This document shows, in pieces, positions 1-16,062 of a stretch of DNA of 55,337 nucleotides. A model generated the notes under the pieces. It saw only the letters and a program-made list of their open reading frames with translations. It had not been told where the DNA came from and searched no databases. A program made the position numbers and the translations under genes. The stretch's first letter is position 1. Each line of letters begins with the position of its first letter. The stretch is from an uncultured Planctomycetia bacterium (GTDB lineage Bacteria > Planctomycetota > Phycisphaerae > FEN-1346 > JAACEH01): the NCBI GenBank assembly GCA_903929765.1, contig CAIYVX010000004.1:1-55337 (forward strand), given 5' to 3'.

Positions 1-186
1 CCGAAGCTCCAGGAACTGAAGCTGGAGGGCCGTCGGGCGGTGGTTTATTCGCCGCTTGATCTGACCTGCGGGCTGGACGGTCACGATTGCGCGTATTGTC
101 AGGGTCCGGTGCGGAACGATGCGCTGAAGATGGCGGCGAATATCCTGCTTCTGGCGTTGCCGGCGGAGGCGGGAATGCAAAATTAA
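1..186 (+). CDS. DUF4159 family protein, C-terminal end (5' truncated)
   Basis: An open frame runs from the first base to a TAA at 184-186 and gives 61 residues. The segment with AVVYSPLDLTCGLDGH followed by DALKMAANILL resembles the conserved C-terminus of DUF4159 proteins, which are common in Planctomycetota and often sit near MoxR/DUF58 gene sets. The function is not established; an exported or membrane-associated role is usual for the family. The last three residues, MQN, and the stop codon lie in the first units of the heptad array that follows, so the array has probably replaced or extended the original C-terminus. The start lies outside the window. Confidence 0.7.
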   Translation, partial: PKLQELKLEGRRAVVYSPLDLTCGLDGHDCAYCQGPVRNDALKMAANILLLALPAEAGMQN

Positions 187-222
187 AAATTAAAAATTAA
201 AAATTAAAAATGAAAAATTAAA
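175..222. repeat. Heptad array 1 (ATTAAAA type)
   Basis: There are six or more tandem 7-mers, mainly ATTAAAA with ATGCAAA and ATGAAAA variants. The array begins inside the end of the DUF4159 gene and supplies its stop codon. Confidence 0.85.
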
Positions 223-3720: not shown

Positions 3721-3846
3721 AATTAAAAATTCAAAATTAAAAATTAAAAATTAACGGCAAAAGAAAAAGAGTTCGACGGCGTCAGGATGATCGGCAGCGA
3801 CAAGAAAATTAAAAGTTCAAAATTAAAAATTAAAAATTAACGGCAA
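3721..3846. repeat. Two heptad arrays (3 and 4) flanking a short spacer
   Basis: Arrays at about 3721-3755 and 3806-3842 both end in ATTAACGGCAAAA. The variants include ATTCAAA. The matching ends suggest that the stretch in between (about 3756-3805) was duplicated together with its array. Confidence 0.8.
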
Positions 3847-5735: not shown

Positions 5736-6038
5736 GGGAGTCCTCGTAGCGGCTGCGGACTAAGGCACCGTTTTATTATGTCGGGTCTGTTGACCCGACC
5801 TACATAACGGTAAACACTGAAGGATATCCGGGGGCTGGCGGATGGTCAAGAAAATCCCCGGCAAGGAGTTCTGTTAAGCCGAAAACAAAAAAAGCTTGTT
5901 TTCTGTACTGAAATTCGTTAACACGGTGGGTCTGTGAGGCCGATAAACACGTAAGAGGCGTTGCCGGGCGGAGGATGGTGCGCCGTTGGCGACGATAAAG
6001 GCCTCTGGAAGAGCCGTACGGTCAGACGCGGACCTGCC
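5736..6038. other. Divergent lysS / atp intergenic region
   Basis: This 303-bp region separates lysS (minus) from the atp operon (plus) and should hold both promoters. I see a hairpin at 5780-5799 with the CCTACATAACGG tail, and an 8-bp stem GAAAACAA/TTGTTTTC around 5880-5902. There is a weak sigma70-like candidate, TTGTTT, 17 bases, TAACAC, near 5894-5922. No gene is convincing; the in-frame extension of the first atp ORF back to 5961 lacks family similarity. Confidence 0.5.
5778..5810. repeat. Hairpin element, CCTACATAACGG tail
   Basis: An 8-bp stem GTCGGGTC/GACCCGAC (5780-5787 with 5792-5799) has the loop TGTT and is followed by the CCTACATAACGG tail also seen at 8032-8044. Confidence 0.7.
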
Positions 6039-6263
6039 ATGCCAGGTGACGACGAGGAATTGCGGACTGGGCGCCGGTTGGCGCGAGCCATGGTTGTCAT
6101 TACGGCCCTGCCCCTGGTCGTCATGGGATTTTTCTTCCTGGGCCTCTACCTCGACAAGAAATTCGGCACGACGCCGTGGTTGATGGGAGTTTGTCTGGTG
6201 CTGGCCCTCGCCGGGGCCGGGTACCAGGCGTATCGAGTGTTCAGCAAGGTTCTGAAGGATTAG
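6039..6263 (+). CDS. atpZ: AtpZ/AtpI-type small membrane protein, first gene of the ATP synthase operon
   Basis: This is a 74-residue protein read from the ATG at 6039; an in-frame upstream ATG at 5961 adds 26 residues without family character. Two hydrophobic helices are visible: MVVITALPLVVMGFFFLGLYL, then PWLMGVCLVLALAGAGYQAYRVF. The first is followed by DKKFGTTPW, the typical AtpZ/F0F1-assembly small-subunit pattern. Such proteins are thought to assist c-ring assembly or Mg2+ handling. The stop is 4 bp before the next start. The exact start is uncertain because no strong ribosome binding site precedes either ATG. Confidence 0.65.
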   Translation: MPGDDEELRTGRRLARAMVVITALPLVVMGFFFLGLYLDKKFGTTPWLMGVCLVLALAGAGYQAYRVFSKVLKD

Positions 6264-6267
6264 GCCC

Positions 6268-6711
6268 ATGACCCAGGGTCCAGAAAACCAAGCGCTCCCA
6301 GACCTCCGGGTGCTCGAGGAGTTTCAGTCCAGCGTTCGGCGGCTGGCGCTGGGGATTTGGACATTGGCCTTGCTGGCGGCGGTGATCATTTCGCACGGCT
6401 CGTGGGCGGTGGCGATTGGCATGGCCCTGGGCGGCGGCGCTTCGATGGCGGCATTCACATTCAAAGTCTGGCTGCTGCGGCGTTTGGCGGCGGACCCCAG
6501 TTCGGCGGGGCGGATGACCTTTATCGGTTTCGGCCGGTACCTGATCTGGCTGGCCTTCCTGTCGCCGGCGATCTGGCTGGGCTGGAAGGGCGACCGGACT
6601 TATGTGGTCGCCGCCCTGGCGACGTTGCCGCTGGCGAGCGTGGCCCTGCTGATTCAGGCCTACCGGACGTCGCGGGCGGTGAAGGCGGGCGAGACGGAAA
6701 TTAAAAATTAA
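6268..6711 (+). CDS. atpI: ATP synthase protein I (AtpI-like)
   Basis: This 147-residue protein has four hydrophobic segments (about 29-48, 50-70, 85-105 and 110-130), the usual AtpI topology. It resembles the ATP synthase I family by position and pattern rather than by a strict motif. AtpI acts in assembly of the c-ring. The final residues, EIKN, and the stop are encoded by the first units of a heptad array. It sits between atpZ and atpB in the expected order. Confidence 0.7.
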   Translation: MTQGPENQALPDLRVLEEFQSSVRRLALGIWTLALLAAVIISHGSWAVAIGMALGGGASMAAFTFKVWLLRRLAADPSSAGRMTFIGFGRYLIWLAFLSPAIWLGWKGDRTYVVAALATLPLASVALLIQAYRTSRAVKAGETEIKN

Positions 6712-6737
6712 AAATGCAAAATTAAAAATTAAAAAGT
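6700..6737. repeat. Heptad array 6
   Basis: Five 7-mers (ATTAAAA, ATGCAAA) begin inside the last codons of atpI and supply its stop. Confidence 0.85.
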
Positions 6738-6873: not shown

Positions 6874-7911
6874 ATGGAAGATATCGCCCCAAGCCTGCCG
6901 CACCAGCTCGTCACTGTGCCGGGTGGGATGCCGCTGACCTACCAGTACGCGACGATCTTCATGGCCATTTGCGTCGTGGCGCTGCTGACGCTGATGAGCC
7001 TGGCCTGGACGCGGCGCGTTAAGATGATACCCGGTCGCGGGCAGGCGGTGCTGGAGTTGGCGGTTTCGGCCCTGCGCGATCTGTGCTACGCCACGATGGG
7101 GCCGAAAGAGGGGCGGGCTTACCTGCCGCTGATCGGGACGATTTTCCTGTTCGTCTGGGTCTCGAATATGTTTGTGCTGATTCCGACGGCGGAGATTTTC
7201 AAGGCTCTGACCGGGCGCAGCGATCTGTACCTGCCGCTGTTCGGCCACACGTTGATTATTCCCGGGGTGCAGGAACCCTCGCGGAACGTCAATTTTCCGT
7301 GGGGGCTGGGGATCATGGTGTTTTTCGTCATGCACGTCAGCGCGGTTCTGAAGAAGGGGCCGGCGCACTATTTCAACGAATATTTTACGCCGCACTTCGG
7401 GATGATCCGCTGGCGTCTGGACAAGCCGGGGATTCGTTTTCTGGCGGCGGCGATTTTTGCCGTGGTCTGGGGCGGCATCGCCTTCTTTGTAGCGTGGGCG
7501 TTTGGCGGTTCGAACTTGGTCAAGGCGGCGGCCGGGGCGGGGATGGGGATTTTCTCGCTGATCTGGTGCCTGGTGCGGCTGTCGCACAAGCCGAAGATGG
7601 TGGGGATTCCGAACGTGTTGATCCTGCCGCTGAACGTGATCGGCAAGGGCGCGGAGATACTGTCGATGTGTTTCCGGTTGTTCGGAAATATTTTCGGCGG
7701 CGCGGTGATTATCACGCTGCTGAGCGGCATGACCCGGCAGATCGGGTTGCCTTTGATTTTGCAGGGATTTATCGGGGTGTTTACGGGAACGATTCAGGCC
7801 TTCGTCTTCACGATGCTGTCGCTGACGTACATTGCGGTGGAGATTGGCGCGGGTCAGGAAGAGGAAGCTGAGGAGCACGAAGAAGAAGTCGCGGCGGAAG
7901 GGAAAAGTTAA
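6874..7911 (+). CDS. atpB: F-type ATP synthase subunit a, with an insertion
   Basis: This 345-residue protein forms the stator half-channels for ion flow. The essential arginine is R268 in SMCFRLFGNIFGG, and the final helix has Q308 in GTIQAFVFTMLSLTYI, both as expected. Usually the segment equivalent to YFNEYFTP (167-173) is followed at once by the LPLN motif. Here about 70 extra residues (173-245) intervene, with two hydrophobic stretches at about 189-210 and 216-235. The C-terminus is very acidic (EEEAEEHEEEVAAEGKS). An in-frame ATG at 6874 lies after a weak AAGAAG site. The insertion is in frame and has normal composition, so it is not a frameshift artefact. Confidence 0.92.
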   Translation: MEDIAPSLPHQLVTVPGGMPLTYQYATIFMAICVVALLTLMSLAWTRRVKMIPGRGQAVLELAVSALRDLCYATMGPKEGRAYLPLIGTIFLFVWVSNMFVLIPTAEIFKALTGRSDLYLPLFGHTLIIPGVQEPSRNVNFPWGLGIMVFFVMHVSAVLKKGPAHYFNEYFTPHFGMIRWRLDKPGIRFLAAAIFAVVWGGIAFFVAWAFGGSNLVKAAAGAGMGIFSLIWCLVRLSHKPKMVGIPNVLILPLNVIGKGAEILSMCFRLFGNIFGGAVIITLLSGMTRQIGLPLILQGFIGVFTGTIQAFVFTMLSLTYIAVEIGAGQEEEAEEHEEEVAAEGKS

Positions 7912-7947
7912 AAATTAAAAATTCAAAATTAAAAATGAAAAATTAGA
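7909..7947. repeat. Heptad array 7
   Basis: There are five 7-mers (ATTAAAA, ATTCAAA, ATGAAAA, ATTAGAA). The array starts at the atpB stop codon TAA (7909-7911). Confidence 0.85.
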
Positions 7948-8055: not shown

Positions 8056-8832
8056 ATGGCGAGTTTTTTGGAAGTTCTTCAGGATCCGACGTCGATGAAC
8101 TCGATGAAGTTCCTCGGGGCGGGTCTGGCCATGGGCCTGGCGGCCATCGGACCGGCGGCGGGTCAGGGCTATGCGGCGGGCAAGGCGGCGGTGGCGATCA
8201 GCCGCCAGCCGGTCCTGGCGGGCACGATGCTCCGGACGCTGCTGATTGGCCAAAGTATCGCCGAAACGTCGGGGATTCTGGGTCTGGTGGTGGGCATCAC
8301 GCTGCTGGTGGGAAGCAAGTCGGCGTTGCCGGACTGGTCGGTGGCGGCGGCGATGATCGGGTCGGGCCTGGCGGTGGGCCTGTCGGCCATGGGGCCGGGG
8401 CTGGGCAGCGGATTGATCGTGGGCAAGGCCCTGGAGGCCATCAGCCGCACGCCGGGAGCGACGGGCAAGATAACGATTACCATGTTGCTGGGCCAGGCCC
8501 TGGCCGAGAACGCCTGTATTCTGGGATTCGTGGTGGCCATGCTGCCGCTGCTGACCAAGAACAAAATTCTCGATACTGGCGACGAGACTTATTGGGTGAC
8601 GGTCCTGGGAGGCATGGGGCGGCACATTGGCGCGGGCCTGTCGATCGGCCTGGGGGCCTTTGGGGCGGCGGTGGGCATCGGGTACGCGGGATCGCGGGCG
8701 GTCGGCGGCGTGGGGGCCAATATCGACCACGCGAGCACGATTCAGCGGACGATGTTCGTGGGCATGGCGGTGAGCGAGTCGATGGCGATCTCGTCGTTTG
8801 TGGTGGCGATTACGCTGCTGATGACGGGGTGA
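8056..8832 (+). CDS. atpE: ATP synthase subunit c, triple-hairpin fusion
   Basis: This 258-residue protein contains three consecutive F/V-type c hairpins, about residues 18-85, 97-166 and 183-256, each with two transmembrane helices. The ion-binding glutamates are E70, E151 and E241, so none has been lost. In helix 1 of each hairpin, the position four residues after the Pro (or equivalent Ala) reads Q37, S118 and I208. The residue after each Glu is T71, N152 and S242. Hairpin 1 therefore has the Q...E-T pattern seen in Na+-binding c subunits, while hairpins 2 and 3 lack the glutamine. Normal F-type c subunits are 70-90 residues. The three units differ at many positions, so this is an old fusion, not an assembly duplication. 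A separate single-hairpin c gene follows. Confidence 0.9.
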   Translation: MASFLEVLQDPTSMNSMKFLGAGLAMGLAAIGPAAGQGYAAGKAAVAISRQPVLAGTMLRTLLIGQSIAETSGILGLVVGITLLVGSKSALPDWSVAAAMIGSGLAVGLSAMGPGLGSGLIVGKALEAISRTPGATGKITITMLLGQALAENACILGFVVAMLPLLTKNKILDTGDETYWVTVLGGMGRHIGAGLSIGLGAFGAAVGIGYAGSRAVGGVGANIDHASTIQRTMFVGMAVSESMAISSFVVAITLLMTG

Positions 8833-8835
8833 CGG

Positions 8836-8872
8836 AATTAAAAATTCAAAATTCAAAATTAAAAATGTAAAA
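8836..8872. repeat. Heptad array 8
   Basis: About five 7-mers (ATTAAAA, ATTCAAA, ATGTAAA) lie just after the stop of the fused c gene. Confidence 0.85.
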
Positions 8873-8930: not shown

Positions 8931-9200
8931 ATGGATCCGAAAGCGGCGGAAGCGTTGGCACACGGTTTGATGCTGGGCGGGGCGTTCCTGGGCGCGGGGT
9001 TGTGCATGGGCCTGGGGGCGGTGGGTCCGGGTCTGGGCCAGGGATTTGCGGCCGGGCGGGCCTGCGAAGGTATTTCGCGGCGGCCGGATCAGGCCGGAGC
9101 TTTGACGCGGACGATGTTGATCGGCCAGGCCGTGGCGGAGTCGTGCGGCATTTATTCGCTGGTCGTGGCGTTGTTGCTGATTTTCAGCACGGGAAAATAA
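8931..9200 (+). CDS. atpE: ATP synthase subunit c, single hairpin
   Basis: This 89-residue proteolipid has two helices joined by the polar loop ACEGISRRPDQAG. Helix 1 has VGPGLGQGFAAGRA with Q37. Helix 2 has AESCGIYSLVVALLL with E70, S71 and Y75. Gln, Glu-Ser and Tyr at these spacings match the Na+ ligand set of Ilyobacter and Acetobacterium c subunits, so Na+ coupling is plausible but not proven. A good AGGAG lies 9 bp before the ATG, stronger than the site of the fused c gene, which suggests higher expression of this form. Confidence 0.93.
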   Translation: MDPKAAEALAHGLMLGGAFLGAGLCMGLGAVGPGLGQGFAAGRACEGISRRPDQAGALTRTMLIGQAVAESCGIYSLVVALLLIFSTGK

Positions 9201-9322: not shown

Positions 9323-10558
9323 ATGACACCGACAAAAAAGCTGATCCTCAAGATTCTGGTGGGGGTTTATGTGGTCCTGATCGTGGCTTTCCTGGCCCAG
9401 AGCGTGCTGCGCACGCAGGCGCCGGCGGCTCGGTGCGCCCTGAGCGAAAAGCTGGTCGGGGCGACGCTGGCGGAACCGCTGGAGTTGAAGAGCCTGAAGG
9501 TTCAGGCGGTGACGGCGGAACAGGTGGAGGCTCTGGGCACGGCTCGGGTGAGCGCGCTGGGCACGGGCGATGCGGCAGTGAGTGTAAACGCGGCGCTGGT
9601 CGGCAAGACGCTCCAGGCCCCGGCGCTGCCCACGGGCACGACGATCAACGAGGCCCTGTGGAACCACGTTCTGGCTCCGGAAAAACTGTTTCGCGAGAAG
9701 GCCGGCGTGGTCGGCTTCGCCCGCATCGCCGGGACCGAGACCGGCGTGGAGTGGACGCTGAACGCCAAGCTGGTCGGAGCCGAACTGGCCGAGCCGCTGG
9801 AATTGAAGTCGCTGGATGGCAAGGTGGCAACGGCTGAGGTGATCAAGGGTCTGACGAGCAGCCACGTCAGCGAGATGGCCACGACGGGCGACCCGGAGGC
9901 GGTGGTGGGGACGAGCCTGGTGGGCCAGACTTTTCGCCGGCCGGTGCTGCCAGCGGAGACGGCCGTGACCGATGATCTCTGGAAGAACGTTCTGGCGGGC
10001 GAAAAGGAGTTCCGCGAGGCGGCCAAGGAGCCGACGACGCTTTACGTTCGCGGGTCCGGCGGTATCATGAATTTCGACCTGACGCTGGTTTTTGTGGTGA
10101 TCAACTTCCTGGGCCTCTTGGTGCTGTTGCGGCTGTTCCTGTGGGAACCGATTCTGGGAATTCTGGACAAGCGTGCGGAGACGATTCAGGGCGACCTGGA
10201 CAGCGCCGCCACGGACCGCCGCGAGGCCGAGTCGCTCAAGACGCAGTACGACCGGCAGATCGTCGGGGCCAAGCAGGAGCGTCAGCAGTTGGCGGCCGAA
10301 GGTCGCAGCGAGGGCGAGGCGGAGAAGCAGAGAATCGTGGCCGAGGCCAAGGCGGAGTCGGAGCGGGTCATGGCCCGGACGAAAGAGGAATTGACGGCGG
10401 CGGCGGCGCGGGCCCGGACGGAGCTGCAGAAGGAAGTGGGTCAACTGAGCGTGCAGGTGGCCGAACAGATTCTCCGGCGCGAGGTGCGGGCGGAGGACAA
10501 TGAAAGGCTCGTGCAGGAGTTTCTGGTGAAACTCAAGGAAAGCGGAATTAAAAATTAG
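9323..10558 (+). CDS. atpF: ATP synthase subunit b with an N-terminal anchored repeat domain
   Basis: This 411-residue protein has a C-terminal part from M249 (MNFDLTLVFVVINFLGLL, WEPILGILDKRAETI) that is a canonical b subunit: one transmembrane helix at 253-274, then a long charged coiled coil that links Fo to F1. Before it sit an extra transmembrane helix (about 8-26) and two copies of a roughly 100-residue domain (about 39-137 and 145-240). Each copy has two LVGxTLxxP-type half motifs (43, 92, 150 and 199). With b in its normal orientation, this domain would lie outside the cytoplasm between two membrane helices. Usual b subunits are 150-170 residues. An internal start at 10067 could also make a standard b, but no strong ribosome site precedes it. 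The last residues, IKN, come from a heptad array. Confidence 0.9.
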   Translation: MTPTKKLILKILVGVYVVLIVAFLAQSVLRTQAPAARCALSEKLVGATLAEPLELKSLKVQAVTAEQVEALGTARVSALGTGDAAVSVNAALVGKTLQAPALPTGTTINEALWNHVLAPEKLFREKAGVVGFARIAGTETGVEWTLNAKLVGAELAEPLELKSLDGKVATAEVIKGLTSSHVSEMATTGDPEAVVGTSLVGQTFRRPVLPAETAVTDDLWKNVLAGEKEFREAAKEPTTLYVRGSGGIMNFDLTLVFVVINFLGLLVLLRLFLWEPILGILDKRAETIQGDLDSAATDRREAESLKTQYDRQIVGAKQERQQLAAEGRSEGEAEKQRIVAEAKAESERVMARTKEELTAAAARARTELQKEVGQLSVQVAEQILRREVRAEDNERLVQEFLVKLKESGIKN

Positions 10559-11461: not shown

Positions 11462-13024
11462 ATGCAGACCAACATCAGGCCGGAAGAAGTGAGTCACGTT
11501 TTGCGGGAACAGATCCGCAACTACGAAGGGGCCCTCGACGTCGATGAGATCGGCGAAGTGGTCGAGGTGGGCGACGGCATCGCCCGCGTCTTCGGCCTGG
11601 ATAAGTGCATGTCCAACGAGTTGCTGGAACTGCCGAACGGCGTGTTCGGCATCGCCATGAGCCTCGAGGAGGACAACGTCGGCGTGGTGCTGCTGGGCGA
11701 CGACCGGCTGGTGCGCGAGGGGCACACGGTGAAACGCACGGGGCGGATCGTCGAGGTGCCGGTGGGCGACGCTATGATCGGCCGGGTGGTGAACGCTCTG
11801 GGCCAGCCGGTGGACGGGCGGGGCGAGGTGAAGACGGACCGTTTCCGGCCGGTGGAAATCGTCGCGCCGGGGATCGTCAAGCGGCAGCCGGTCTGCGAGC
11901 CGGTGCAGACGGGGATCAAGTGCATCGATGCCATGACGCCGATCGGGCGCGGGCAGCGCGAACTGATCATCGGCGACCGGCAGACCGGCAAGACGGCGAT
12001 CATCATCGATACGTTTATCAATCAGAAGACCGAGAATATGATTTGCATCTATGTGGCCATCGGTCAGAAGCGTTCGACCATCGCCCGGATCATCAAGGCC
12101 CTGGAGGAAGCGGGGGCGCTGGCCTACACGATCATCGTGGCGGCCTCGGCCTCGGAAGCGGCCCCGATGCAGTACTTGGCGCCTTACGCCGGGTGCGCCA
12201 TGGGCGAGGAGTTCATGGCCCAGGGCAAACACGTCCTGATTGCCTATGACGACCTCTCGAAGCACGCCGTGGCTTACCGGCAGATGATGCTCCTGCTGAG
12301 AAGGCCGCCGGGACGCGAGGCTTATCCGGGCGACGTGTTCTACCTGCATTCGCGGTTGCTGGAGCGGGCGGCGAAGATGTCGGCCAAGGAAGGCGGCGGG
12401 AGTCTGACGGCGCTGCCGGTGATCGAGACGCAGGCCGGGGACGTGTCGGCGTACATTCCGACAAACGTGATTTCGATTACCGACGGGCAGATTTTCGTCG
12501 AGAGCGATCTGTTCTACCAGGGCGTGCGGCCGGCCATGAACGTCGGCATCAGCGTGAGCCGCGTCGGCGGCGCCGCCCAGATCAAGGCGATGAAGAAGGT
12601 GGCCGGGCGGTTGAAGCTCGACCTGGCTCAGTACCGCGAGTATGCGGCCTTCGCCCAGTTCGGCTCGGACCTGGACAAGGCGACGCAGCAGATTCTGGCT
12701 CGCGGCGAACGGATGACGGAAATTCTGAAGCAGCCGCAATTTTCGCCCATGCCGGTGGTGGAACAGGTGGCGATCATTAAGGCGGCCAACGAGGGCTTGC
12801 TGGACGAGGTGCCGGTGGCGGATTGCCGGCGGTTCGAGGCGGAGTTCCTGTCGTGGCTGCGCACGAATCGCGGGCAACTTCTGGAGGAACTGAAAAAGAA
12901 GGGGGCCTTCGACGATGCGCTGGACAAGGCCTTCAAGGCGGCGGGCGCGGAATTCAAGGGCAGCTTCCTGCCGACGGAAGTTGTTTCGGCGGTCACGGAC
13001 GTGGAGACGGAGAAAAAGAATTAA
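11462..13024 (+). CDS. atpA: ATP synthase subunit alpha
   Basis: This 520-residue non-catalytic nucleotide-binding subunit of F1 has the N-terminal beta-barrel segment [29 protein letters not shown], the P-loop GDRQTGKT near 171-178, and the VSRVGGAAQ region (about 360-368) with the arginine finger. The C-terminal helical domain is complete. Length and motifs are those of an active alpha. AAGGA lies 8 bp upstream of the ATG. The final N is encoded at the edge of a heptad array. Confidence 0.97.
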
Positions 13025-13054
13025 AAATTAAAAATGCAAAATTAAAAATTAGAA
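13018..13054. repeat. Heptad array 11
   Basis: There are five 7-mers (ATTAAAA, ATGCAAA, ATTAGAA); the atpA stop codon lies in the first unit. Confidence 0.85.
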
Positions 13055-13221: not shown

Positions 13222-14090
13222 ATGGCGAGTCTTCGGGATATTCGGCGGCGCATTCGCAGCGTGCGCAACACGCAGCAGATCACCAAGGCCATGAAAATGG
13301 TTGCGGCGTCGAAGCTGCGCAAGGCCCAGGCGCGGCTGATGGCCATCCGGCCCTACGAGCAGGCCGTGGGCCAGATGCTGCACACGGTGCTGGCGCGGCT
13401 GATGGGCGATGAGAATCCGCTGCTGGTCGGGCGCGGGGGTAAGCGAGTTTCGCTCATCCTGATTACCGGCGACAAGGGGCTGTCGGGGGCGTTCAACAAC
13501 AACGCCATTCGGCGGGCGGAAGGGTTCATCCGGGAGCGGCCGGACCAGGAAGTGGCGGTCACGGCCATCGGCAAGAAGGGGGCGCGGTATTACCTGAAGA
13601 CGCCCGGCCATCATCCTGCGGCGGTTTATACCGGGCTGTCGGAGGCAGTGACTTTCGCCCAGGCGGCGGCCATCATGTCGAAGCAGGTGGCCGGATACCT
13701 GGCCGGCGAGTGCGACGAAGTGCACGTCATCTACAGTTATTTTCAGAGCGCGATCGCCCAGCAGGTGCGGGTGGAGAGGTTGCTGCCGTTCGAGACGGCG
13801 GAGGCGGCGCGCGAGGCTCCGGCGGCGGCGCAGGAAGTTTATCTGCTGGAACCGTCGGACGAAGAAGTGGCGGCGCGGATTTTGACGGAGAGCCTGAATA
13901 TCCGGCTGTTCCGGGCGCTTCTGGAAAGCGCTTCGAGCGAGCACGGGGCGCGGATGACGAGCATGGACAACGCGACGAAGAGCGCGGACGATATTATCGG
14001 GGCGCTGACGCAACAGTTTAACCGGGCGCGGCAGTCGATGATTACGACGGAGATCGCGGAGATTGTCGGCGGGGCGGAAGCACTGAACAA

Positions 14091-14094
<4 letters not shown>
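13222..14094 (+). CDS. atpG: ATP synthase subunit gamma
   Basis: This 290-residue central-stalk subunit has the N-terminal helix RDIRRRIRSVRNTQQITKAMKMVAASKLRKAQ, the GDKGLSGAFN motif (about 90-99), and the C-terminal helix MTSMDNATKSADDIIGALTQQFNRARQSMITTEIAEIVGGAEAL. All are conserved gamma features. The length is normal. It turns inside alpha3beta3 and couples to the c-ring, so it must fit the unusual rotor encoded upstream; no compensating change is obvious in gamma. Confidence 0.96.
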
Positions 14095-15573
<1,479 letters not shown>

Positions 15574-15648: not shown

Positions 15649-16062
15649 ATGCCGCTAAATGTAACCATTCTCACGCCGGGCCGCTGTCTGCTCAAAGAGA
15701 CGCCGTGCCGGCAGGTCGAGTTGCCGGTGGCCGGCGGCCGGATCGGCGTGCTGGAAAATCACACGCCGCTGGTGACGCCGCTCGAGGTCGGGGAAATCCG
15801 CATTCTGCCGGCTGAGGGCGAGACGGTGCAGTACCTGGCCATTTCGTCGGGGATGGCCGAGGTGACGCCGGAGCGGGTGCTGATCACGGTCCATGCGGCG
15901 GAGTCGGCGGAGGAGATCGACGTGGCGCGGGCCCAGGCGGCGCGCGAGCGGGCGGAGAAGAGATTGCGGGAGCGGGCTAACCTGGATATTGACCGGGCCG
16001 AGCTGGCCATGGCCCGGGCGGCGAATCGGCTGCGCGTGGCCCGGCGGTCGTCCGGACTCTGA
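15649..16062 (+). CDS. atpC: ATP synthase subunit epsilon
   Basis: This 137-residue protein has the N-terminal beta-sandwich with ELPVAGGRIGVLENHTPLVTPLEVGEIRI, which contacts gamma and the c-ring, and a C-terminal helical hairpin (about 85-135, rich in Ala/Arg). It is the last gene of the operon. AAGGG lies upstream of the ATG. The C-terminal hairpin is full length, so epsilon-type inhibition of hydrolysis is possible. Confidence 0.93.
   Translation: MPLNVTILTPGRCLLKETPCRQVELPVAGGRIGVLENHTPLVTPLEVGEIRILPAEGETVQYLAISSGMAEVTPERVLITVHAAESAEEIDVARAQAARERAEKRLRERANLDIDRAELAMARAANRLRVARRSSGL

What the first reader, a model, noticed from the sequence alone, without database searches (positions are those of the whole stretch)
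8056..8832. Triple-hairpin fused c subunit in an F-type ATP synthase
The gene encodes three c-type hairpins in one 258-residue chain with glutamates E70, E151 and E241. The hairpins differ from each other at many positions, so this is not a cloning or assembly repeat. Fused hairpins with three or more units are known from archaeal A-type enzymes; bacterial F-type c is normally a single hairpin, or a duplicated one in Acetobacterium c1. A triple unit keeping every carboxylate in a complete bacterial F operon would fix ring stoichiometry in steps of three and deserves structural work.
Basis: partly seen in the sequence, partly recalled or inferred. Interest (0 to 1): 0.88.

Follow-up and report, generated by a model that had tools for sequence, protein, structure and literature searches.

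The report
Triple-hairpin ATP-synthase rotor subunit
This bacterial ATP synthase has a rotor protein with three fused membrane hairpins beside a normal one-hairpin rotor protein; related bacteria carry two-, three- or four-hairpin versions that have mostly lost the ion-carrying acid, a natural test of how many blank sites a rotary motor tolerates.

Summary
ORF 8056-8832 encodes 258 aa with three c-type hairpins and E70, E151, E241, inside a complete F-type operon. A sister genus has the same gene order, but its middle hairpin carries Gln instead of Glu. Across about 650 Planctomycetota genomes, 27 (at least five classes) carry a multi-hairpin c, each with a single c: 22 triple, 2 quadruple, 2 double, 1 cut by a contig edge. 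The fused hairpins have lost most carboxylates; one triple and both quadruples keep none, yet the genes are intact and under purifying selection where tested. The three hairpins look orthologous across genomes, apparently one old fusion, separate from the Acetobacterium c1 fusion. Best reading: a heteromeric c-ring of the F/V-hybrid-rotor kind, most copies being the single c, with one or a few fused units lowering the ion/ATP ratio. The window protein, with all three carboxylates, is the exception in its family. Ring incorporation and stoichiometry are inferred. New variant of a known kind; bacterial F-type c with three or four fused hairpins was not found described in the literature I could search.

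The parts
8056..8832 (+). fused c subunit gene, 258 aa, three hairpins
   Evidence: PF00137 three times; no stop
8107..8310 (+). hairpin 1 (residues 18-85), loop RQP, Q37, E70 (codon 8263-8265), T71, S72
8347..8550 (+). hairpin 2 (residues 98-165), loop RTP, E151 (codon 8506-8508, GAG; Gln CAG in the sister genus); other ion-site positions S, N, A, L
8617..8823 (+). hairpin 3 (residues 188-256), degenerate loop (ANI), E241 (codon 8776-8778), S242; Ile at the Gln32 position
8931..9200 (+). single-hairpin c subunit gene, 89 aa, with Q at position 32 and VAESCGIY around E70 (codon 9138-9140): sodium-type site except Cys at the Thr67 position
6874..7911 (+). subunit a (345 aa), keeps FRLFGN with the essential Arg (R268); family-specific insert of about 70 aa before that helix
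9323..10558 (+). subunit b (411 aa) with an extra N-terminal membrane helix and a tandemly duplicated domain of about 90 residues before the usual b helix
10800..11339 (+). subunit delta (OSCP)
11462..13024 (+). subunit alpha (TIGR00962 above cut-off)
13222..14094 (+). subunit gamma
14173..15573 (+). subunit beta (TIGR01039 above cut-off)
15649..16062 (+). subunit epsilon (TIGR01216 above cut-off)
5961..6263 (+). AtpZ-like accessory protein (PF09527)
6268..6711 (+). probable AtpI-like protein (PF03899 only below cut-off; place in operon)

Best explanation
The operon encodes an F-type ATP synthase whose rotor ring is most likely heteromeric: mostly copies of the single-hairpin c (8931-9200), which carries the complete ion site, plus one or a few copies of the three-hairpin c (8056-8832) built into the same ring as a preassembled three-hairpin segment. 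By analogy with Acetobacterium woodii, the fused segment would set the number of ion sites relative to hairpins and so the ion/ATP ratio. In most relatives the fused hairpins have lost the carboxylate and the segment is wholly or partly a blank sector that turns without carrying an ion. In this organism all three carboxylates are present, but only hairpin 1 keeps most of the site around its Glu; the sites of hairpins 2 and 3 are degenerate, so they may carry protons, weak sodium loads, or little. Shown: gene content, gene order, hairpin count, carboxylate count, conservation, selection in close pairs. Inferred: ring membership, copy number, coupling ion, effect on ion/ATP ratio.
For: Fused c and single c lie side by side between a and b in the window, and a single c accompanies the fused one in all 27 genomes, adjacent in 24 and on another contig region in G493, G328 and G445. 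The single c always has its Glu and a sodium-type set: E or Q at 32, S or T at 66, T or C at 67, Y at 70 (site defined in PMC3692424). Helix-1 small residues needed for ring packing are kept in about 95-100% of fused hairpins at eight of the ten positions examined. Fused genes evolve under purifying selection in close pairs, including the quadruple without any carboxylate (dN/dS 0.07). Best PDB match is the c1 subunit of the A. woodii hybrid ring, 4BEM; in Clostridium aceticum and A. woodii a two-hairpin c with one lost carboxylate plus a single-hairpin c form the hybrid-rotor type (PMC7911925). The AlphaFold2 model shows six helices as three hairpins, but at low confidence (mean pLDDT 45, two sequences).
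Against: No biochemistry. In Bacillus PS3 a single E-to-Q change in a fused c10 ring abolishes ATP synthesis and proton pumping (PMC8809890), so rings with two to four blank hairpins are not expected to work by the standard model. The window protein keeps all three Glu, so the lost-carboxylate part of the explanation does not apply to it directly. Translation signals favour the single c over the fused c in the window (-8.8 against -4.2 kcal/mol) but only in 15 of 23 loci, with a permissive choice of start codon, so this is no real support.
Confidence: 0.74

Rival explanations
1. Homomeric triple ring: in this organism the fused c alone builds the ring (for example 9, 12 or 15 hairpins) and the single c is minor or used under other conditions.
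For: All three hairpins keep Glu; fused archaeal c rings exist, and triple c in Methanocaldococcus is known (PMC2359735).
Against: The single c is the more conserved partner and carries the complete site in every genome; hairpins 2 and 3 of the fused protein have degenerate sites; relatives whose fused c has no carboxylate cannot work this way; the sister genus has Gln at position 151.
Confidence: 0.1
2. The fused c is not a rotor part but an assembly, plugging or regulatory factor of the ring that is derived from c.
For: Several fused c proteins have no carboxylate (G387, G328, G445), and a single c with a full site is always present.
Against: Helix-1 packing residues are kept in the fused hairpins; the loop motif (RQP, RNP or RTP) is kept in most h1 and h2 hairpins; the gene sits between a and b like a c gene; the analogous A. 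woodii c1 is in the ring (PDB 4BEM).
Confidence: 0.13
3. Assembly or sequencing artefact: two or three genes wrongly joined.
For: The genomes examined are MAG-like draft assemblies; E151 differs from the sister's Gln by one base (GAG against CAG), so that one residue could in principle be a consensus error.
Against: 22 genomes carry open triple frames, with hairpins 1, 2 and 3 forming separate near-clades.
Confidence: 0.02

Closest known systems
Acetobacterium woodii F/V-hybrid rotor (c1 with two hairpins plus c2/c3; PDB 4BEM) and Clostridium aceticum c1/c2
   Same: F-type operon with one fused c and a single-hairpin c side by side; sodium-type site in the single c; loss of the carboxylate in fused hairpins (in the relatives, not in the window)
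   Different: Three hairpins here (four in two relatives) instead of two; window keeps every carboxylate; the A. woodii c1 halves group with A. woodii c2, not with these hairpins (100% SH-aLRT), so the fusions look independent
Archaeal A-type triple c (Methanocaldococcus jannaschii) and 13-hairpin c (Methanopyrus kandleri), PMC2359735
   Same: Three or more hairpins in one chain
   Different: A/V-type enzymes, and described there without a separate single c; the window protein is below the cut-offs of the V-type subunit K models and sits in an F-type operon with b, delta and epsilon
Fusobacterium nucleatum sodium c-ring with two carboxylates (PMC3692424)
   Same: The single c of 24 of 27 genomes has Glu at position 32 as well as the main Glu; the set Val63, Glu65, Ser66, Thr67, Tyr70 is largely present
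   Different: F. nucleatum has one single-hairpin c in a ring of 11; the window single c has Gln at 32 and Cys at 67

Membership tests
F-type ATP synthase subunit c (PF00137) | Matches the family profile above the curated cut-off | tested here: met
   134.6 bits against 24, three stretches
F-type ATP synthase | Operon with a, b, c, delta, alpha, gamma, beta, epsilon | tested here: met
F/V-hybrid rotor (A. woodii type) | A fused c gene and a single-hairpin c gene in one F-type operon | tested here: met
   8056-8832 and 8931-9200; same in relatives
F/V-hybrid rotor (A. woodii type) | Fused subunit has lost the carboxylate in at least one hairpin | tested here: not met
   Window has Glu in 3 of 3 hairpins; all other triples and both quadruples lost one or more
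F/V-hybrid rotor (A. woodii type) | Single c carries a sodium-binding motif | tested here: met
   Q...ES...Y in the window, with Cys at the Thr67 position; binding itself not tested
F/V-hybrid rotor (A. woodii type) | Fused and single c occupy the same ring | not testable with these tools
   needs purified complex
F/V-hybrid rotor (A. woodii type) | Common origin of the fusion with A. woodii c1 | tested here: not met
   A. woodii c1 halves join A. woodii c2 at 100% SH-aLRT; a forced h1 grouping has p-AU 0.052, borderline (only 69 columns)
A/V-type ATPase subunit K (fused c) | Above the curated cut-off of a subunit K model | tested here: not met
   54.9-56 bits against cut-offs of 101-211 for the best K models

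The most novel reading that the evidence does not exclude
These Planctomycetota F-type enzymes run rotor rings with a built-in blank sector: up to three or four adjacent hairpins without any carboxylate (G387, G328, G445), flanked by sodium-binding single c subunits. That would mean an F-type ring can turn past several consecutive sites that carry no ion, so torque is delivered unevenly round the ring and hairpin number is uncoupled from ion number in graded steps (two, three, four hairpins).
Probability: 0.42. Interest if true: 0.85.

Novelty: new variant of a known kind. Interest (0 to 1): 0.63.

Why it matters
The number of ion sites in the rotor ring sets how many ions are spent per ATP, and engineered rings fail when a single site is neutralised (PMC8809890). 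A bacterial lineage that has fused two, three or four hairpins and shed between none and all of their carboxylates, always next to an intact single c, is a ready-made series for asking how many blank sites a ring can tolerate, how heteromeric rings are assembled, and whether such rings fit life at low energy yield. The sister MAG's name and the A. woodii precedent suggest anaerobes, but habitat was not tested here.

Tried and rejected
Assembly repeat: rejected by diverged copies and 22 genomes with triples. Archaeal A-type subunit K: rejected by model cut-offs and operon type. Homology of the fusion with A. woodii c1: not supported. AlphaFold2 model: six helices but pLDDT 45 because only two sequences were permitted in the alignment; not used for a fold search. 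Shine-Dalgarno strength as a proxy for copy number: 15 of 23 loci, p 0.048, start choice permissive; not relied on. Pattern scan of 85,000 genomes found only the sister MAG, but it used two narrow peptide patterns and cannot count distant relatives. Viral contigs: none. Plasmid collection: only single c matches, none covering 80% of the query. Searching other phyla whole-genome by whole-genome was not possible because a search centre must be a handle within this phylum. Coupling ion from other sodium pumps: no Rnf/Nqr (PF03116), no OAD beta, one membrane pyrophosphatase; inconclusive. My first offsets for hairpin identity were out of register and are not used.

Full report
What is there. The window holds a complete F-type ATP synthase operon on the + strand: AtpZ-like 5961, AtpI-like 6268, a 6874, fused c 8056, single c 8931, b 9323, delta 10800, alpha 11462, gamma 13222, beta 14173, epsilon 15649. 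The ORF at 8056-8832 matches PF00137 three times and has Glu at 70, 151 and 241. The downstream ORF 8931-9200 is a normal single-hairpin c. The genome (3.83 Mb, 96% complete) has no other PF00137 match.

Is it real. The sister genus in the same family (G001; JAAYDY010000099.1, a Phycisphaerae MAG) has the same a, triple c, single c, b order, with the triple c 54% identical. In the class, 298 genomes were searched and only these two have a triple. In a sample of 392 genomes of the phylum, 25 further genomes in other classes have multi-hairpin c, and in one of those classes most genomes of one family have it: all but one of 16 genomes of family f58. The handles used add up to about 650 different genomes.

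Hairpin counts. After fetching the loci, hairpins were counted with a profile made from the window and sister hairpins: 22 triples, 2 quadruples (G328, G445; 338 aa), 2 doubles (G334, G350) and one gene cut by a contig edge (G325). A single c is present in all 27 genomes. Subunit a keeps the essential Arg in FRLFGN in the 14 sequences aligned.

Carboxylates. The single c always has Glu. In the fused c the counts are: triples with three Glu, the window only; two Glu in G001, G348, G367, G384, G417, G493; one Glu in 14; none in G387; both quadruples none; both doubles one (Glu then Gln). The lost Glu is replaced by Gln, Thr or Ser. In hairpin 2 every genome but the window has Gln or Thr among triples, and the window codon GAG is one step from the sister's CAG, so E151 may be a reversion rather than an ancestral state; this was not tested formally. 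The remaining positions of the ion site in hairpins 2 and 3 of the window are degenerate (S/N/A/L and I/S/M/S), while hairpin 1 keeps Q37, E70, T71 and S72.

History. In a tree of all hairpins, hairpins 1, 2 and 3 from different genomes form three near-clades (12 changes of position label against a minimum of 9 and a shuffled mean of 65.5). That points to one old triplication rather than repeated fusions, although 69 columns cannot resolve many forks. The quadruple has two hairpins in the h1 group followed by one h2-like and one h3-like, so it looks like a triple that gained an extra h1. The doubles have an h1-like and an h2-like hairpin. The two halves of Acetobacterium woodii c1 (sequence taken from the PDB alignment) join A. 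woodii c2 at 100% SH-aLRT, so that fusion looks separate. The presence in at least five classes and absence in most of their neighbours fits either old origin with many losses or transfer between lineages; I did not separate these.

Selection and packing. Close pairs give dN/dS of 0.07 for the quadruple without carboxylates, the same as for its single c partner, and 0.04-0.16 for triples. The window-sister pair is more relaxed for the fused c (0.49) than for the single c (0.30) or beta (0.10), all at substantial divergence. The small residues along helix 1 that pack the inner ring are kept in about 95-100% of fused hairpins. The loop motif is kept in most hairpins 1 and 2 and is degenerate in many hairpins 3, including the window's.

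How it most likely works. The known precedent is the A. woodii hybrid ring, in which a two-hairpin c1 with one lost carboxylate sits in one ring with single-hairpin c2/c3 (PDB 4BEM; hybrid type described in PMC7911925; ten sodium sites per ring in PMC7793690). The same logic applied here gives a ring made mostly of single c with one or a few fused segments. The fused segment lowers ions per turn in the relatives that lost carboxylates; in the window it may lower it little or not at all. The step from operon to ring is inferred. The main difficulty is that a single E-to-Q change in a fused ten-hairpin ring of Bacillus PS3 abolished synthesis and pumping (PMC8809890); either these natural rings have compensating features, or the fused protein is not in the ring.

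Coupling ion. The window single c has Q32, V, E, S, C, Y in the positions that bind sodium in Ilyobacter and Fusobacterium c-rings (PMC3692424, PMC2359735), and 24 of 27 relatives have the two-carboxylate form with Glu at 32. This suggests sodium but does not prove it. The genome lacks Rnf/Nqr and OAD beta and has a membrane pyrophosphatase whose ion was not determined.

Other features of the enzyme. The b subunits of these operons that I read have an extra N-terminal membrane helix followed by roughly 60 to 230 residues before the usual b helix, while b subunits next to ordinary single c in other Planctomycetota do not show this. In the window this extra domain is a tandem duplication (local alignment score 201 against 30 plus or minus 5 for shuffles). 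So the multi-hairpin c marks a distinct subtype of the enzyme rather than an isolated change.

Limits. The survey covers Planctomycetota only. The broad pattern scan was narrow, and no genome-by-genome search of other phyla was possible. The literature search was limited to open papers; the survey of hybrid rotors by Brandt and Mueller (2015, Biol. Chem.) is cited in PMC7911925 but could not be read here. From memory it reports hybrid rotors with two-hairpin fused c in about a dozen anaerobes and none with three hairpins; this is a recollection, not a test. Also from memory, the triple c of Methanocaldococcus has only two carboxylates.

Noticed in passing
window 9323-10072: Subunit b has an extra N-terminal membrane helix and a tandemly duplicated domain of about 90 residues between it and the usual b helix; the sister genus has one copy, and other multi-hairpin operons have differing extra domains there.
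   Followed up: partly
window about 7417-7611: Subunit a carries an insert of about 70 residues with two hydrophobic stretches just before the helix with the essential Arg; shared only with the sister genus among 14 aligned a subunits.
   Followed up: partly
L088, L083, L086, L082 subunit a genes: Subunit a of many relatives has an extra loop rich in Asp/Asn/Gly (such as DYNGNEAYDPGEPFVDSNNNGKHD) that looks like calcium-binding repeats; its side of the membrane was not tested.
   Followed up: no
window 179-206, 1990-2003, 3726-3753, 3819-3839, 6718-6731, 7911-7931, 8841-8861, 13038-13051: AT-rich repeats of AAAATTN in this GC-rich window, mostly between genes; all eight are on the + strand and none on the - strand.
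   Followed up: partly
L078 and L117 (genomes G548, G531): Some relatives carry a second F-type cluster whose single c has the MVES motif and a long b, resembling the N-ATPase type.
   Followed up: no
L145 (G000:C39:5849-8074): The window's genome has one membrane-bound pyrophosphatase; the ion it pumps was not determined.
   Followed up: no
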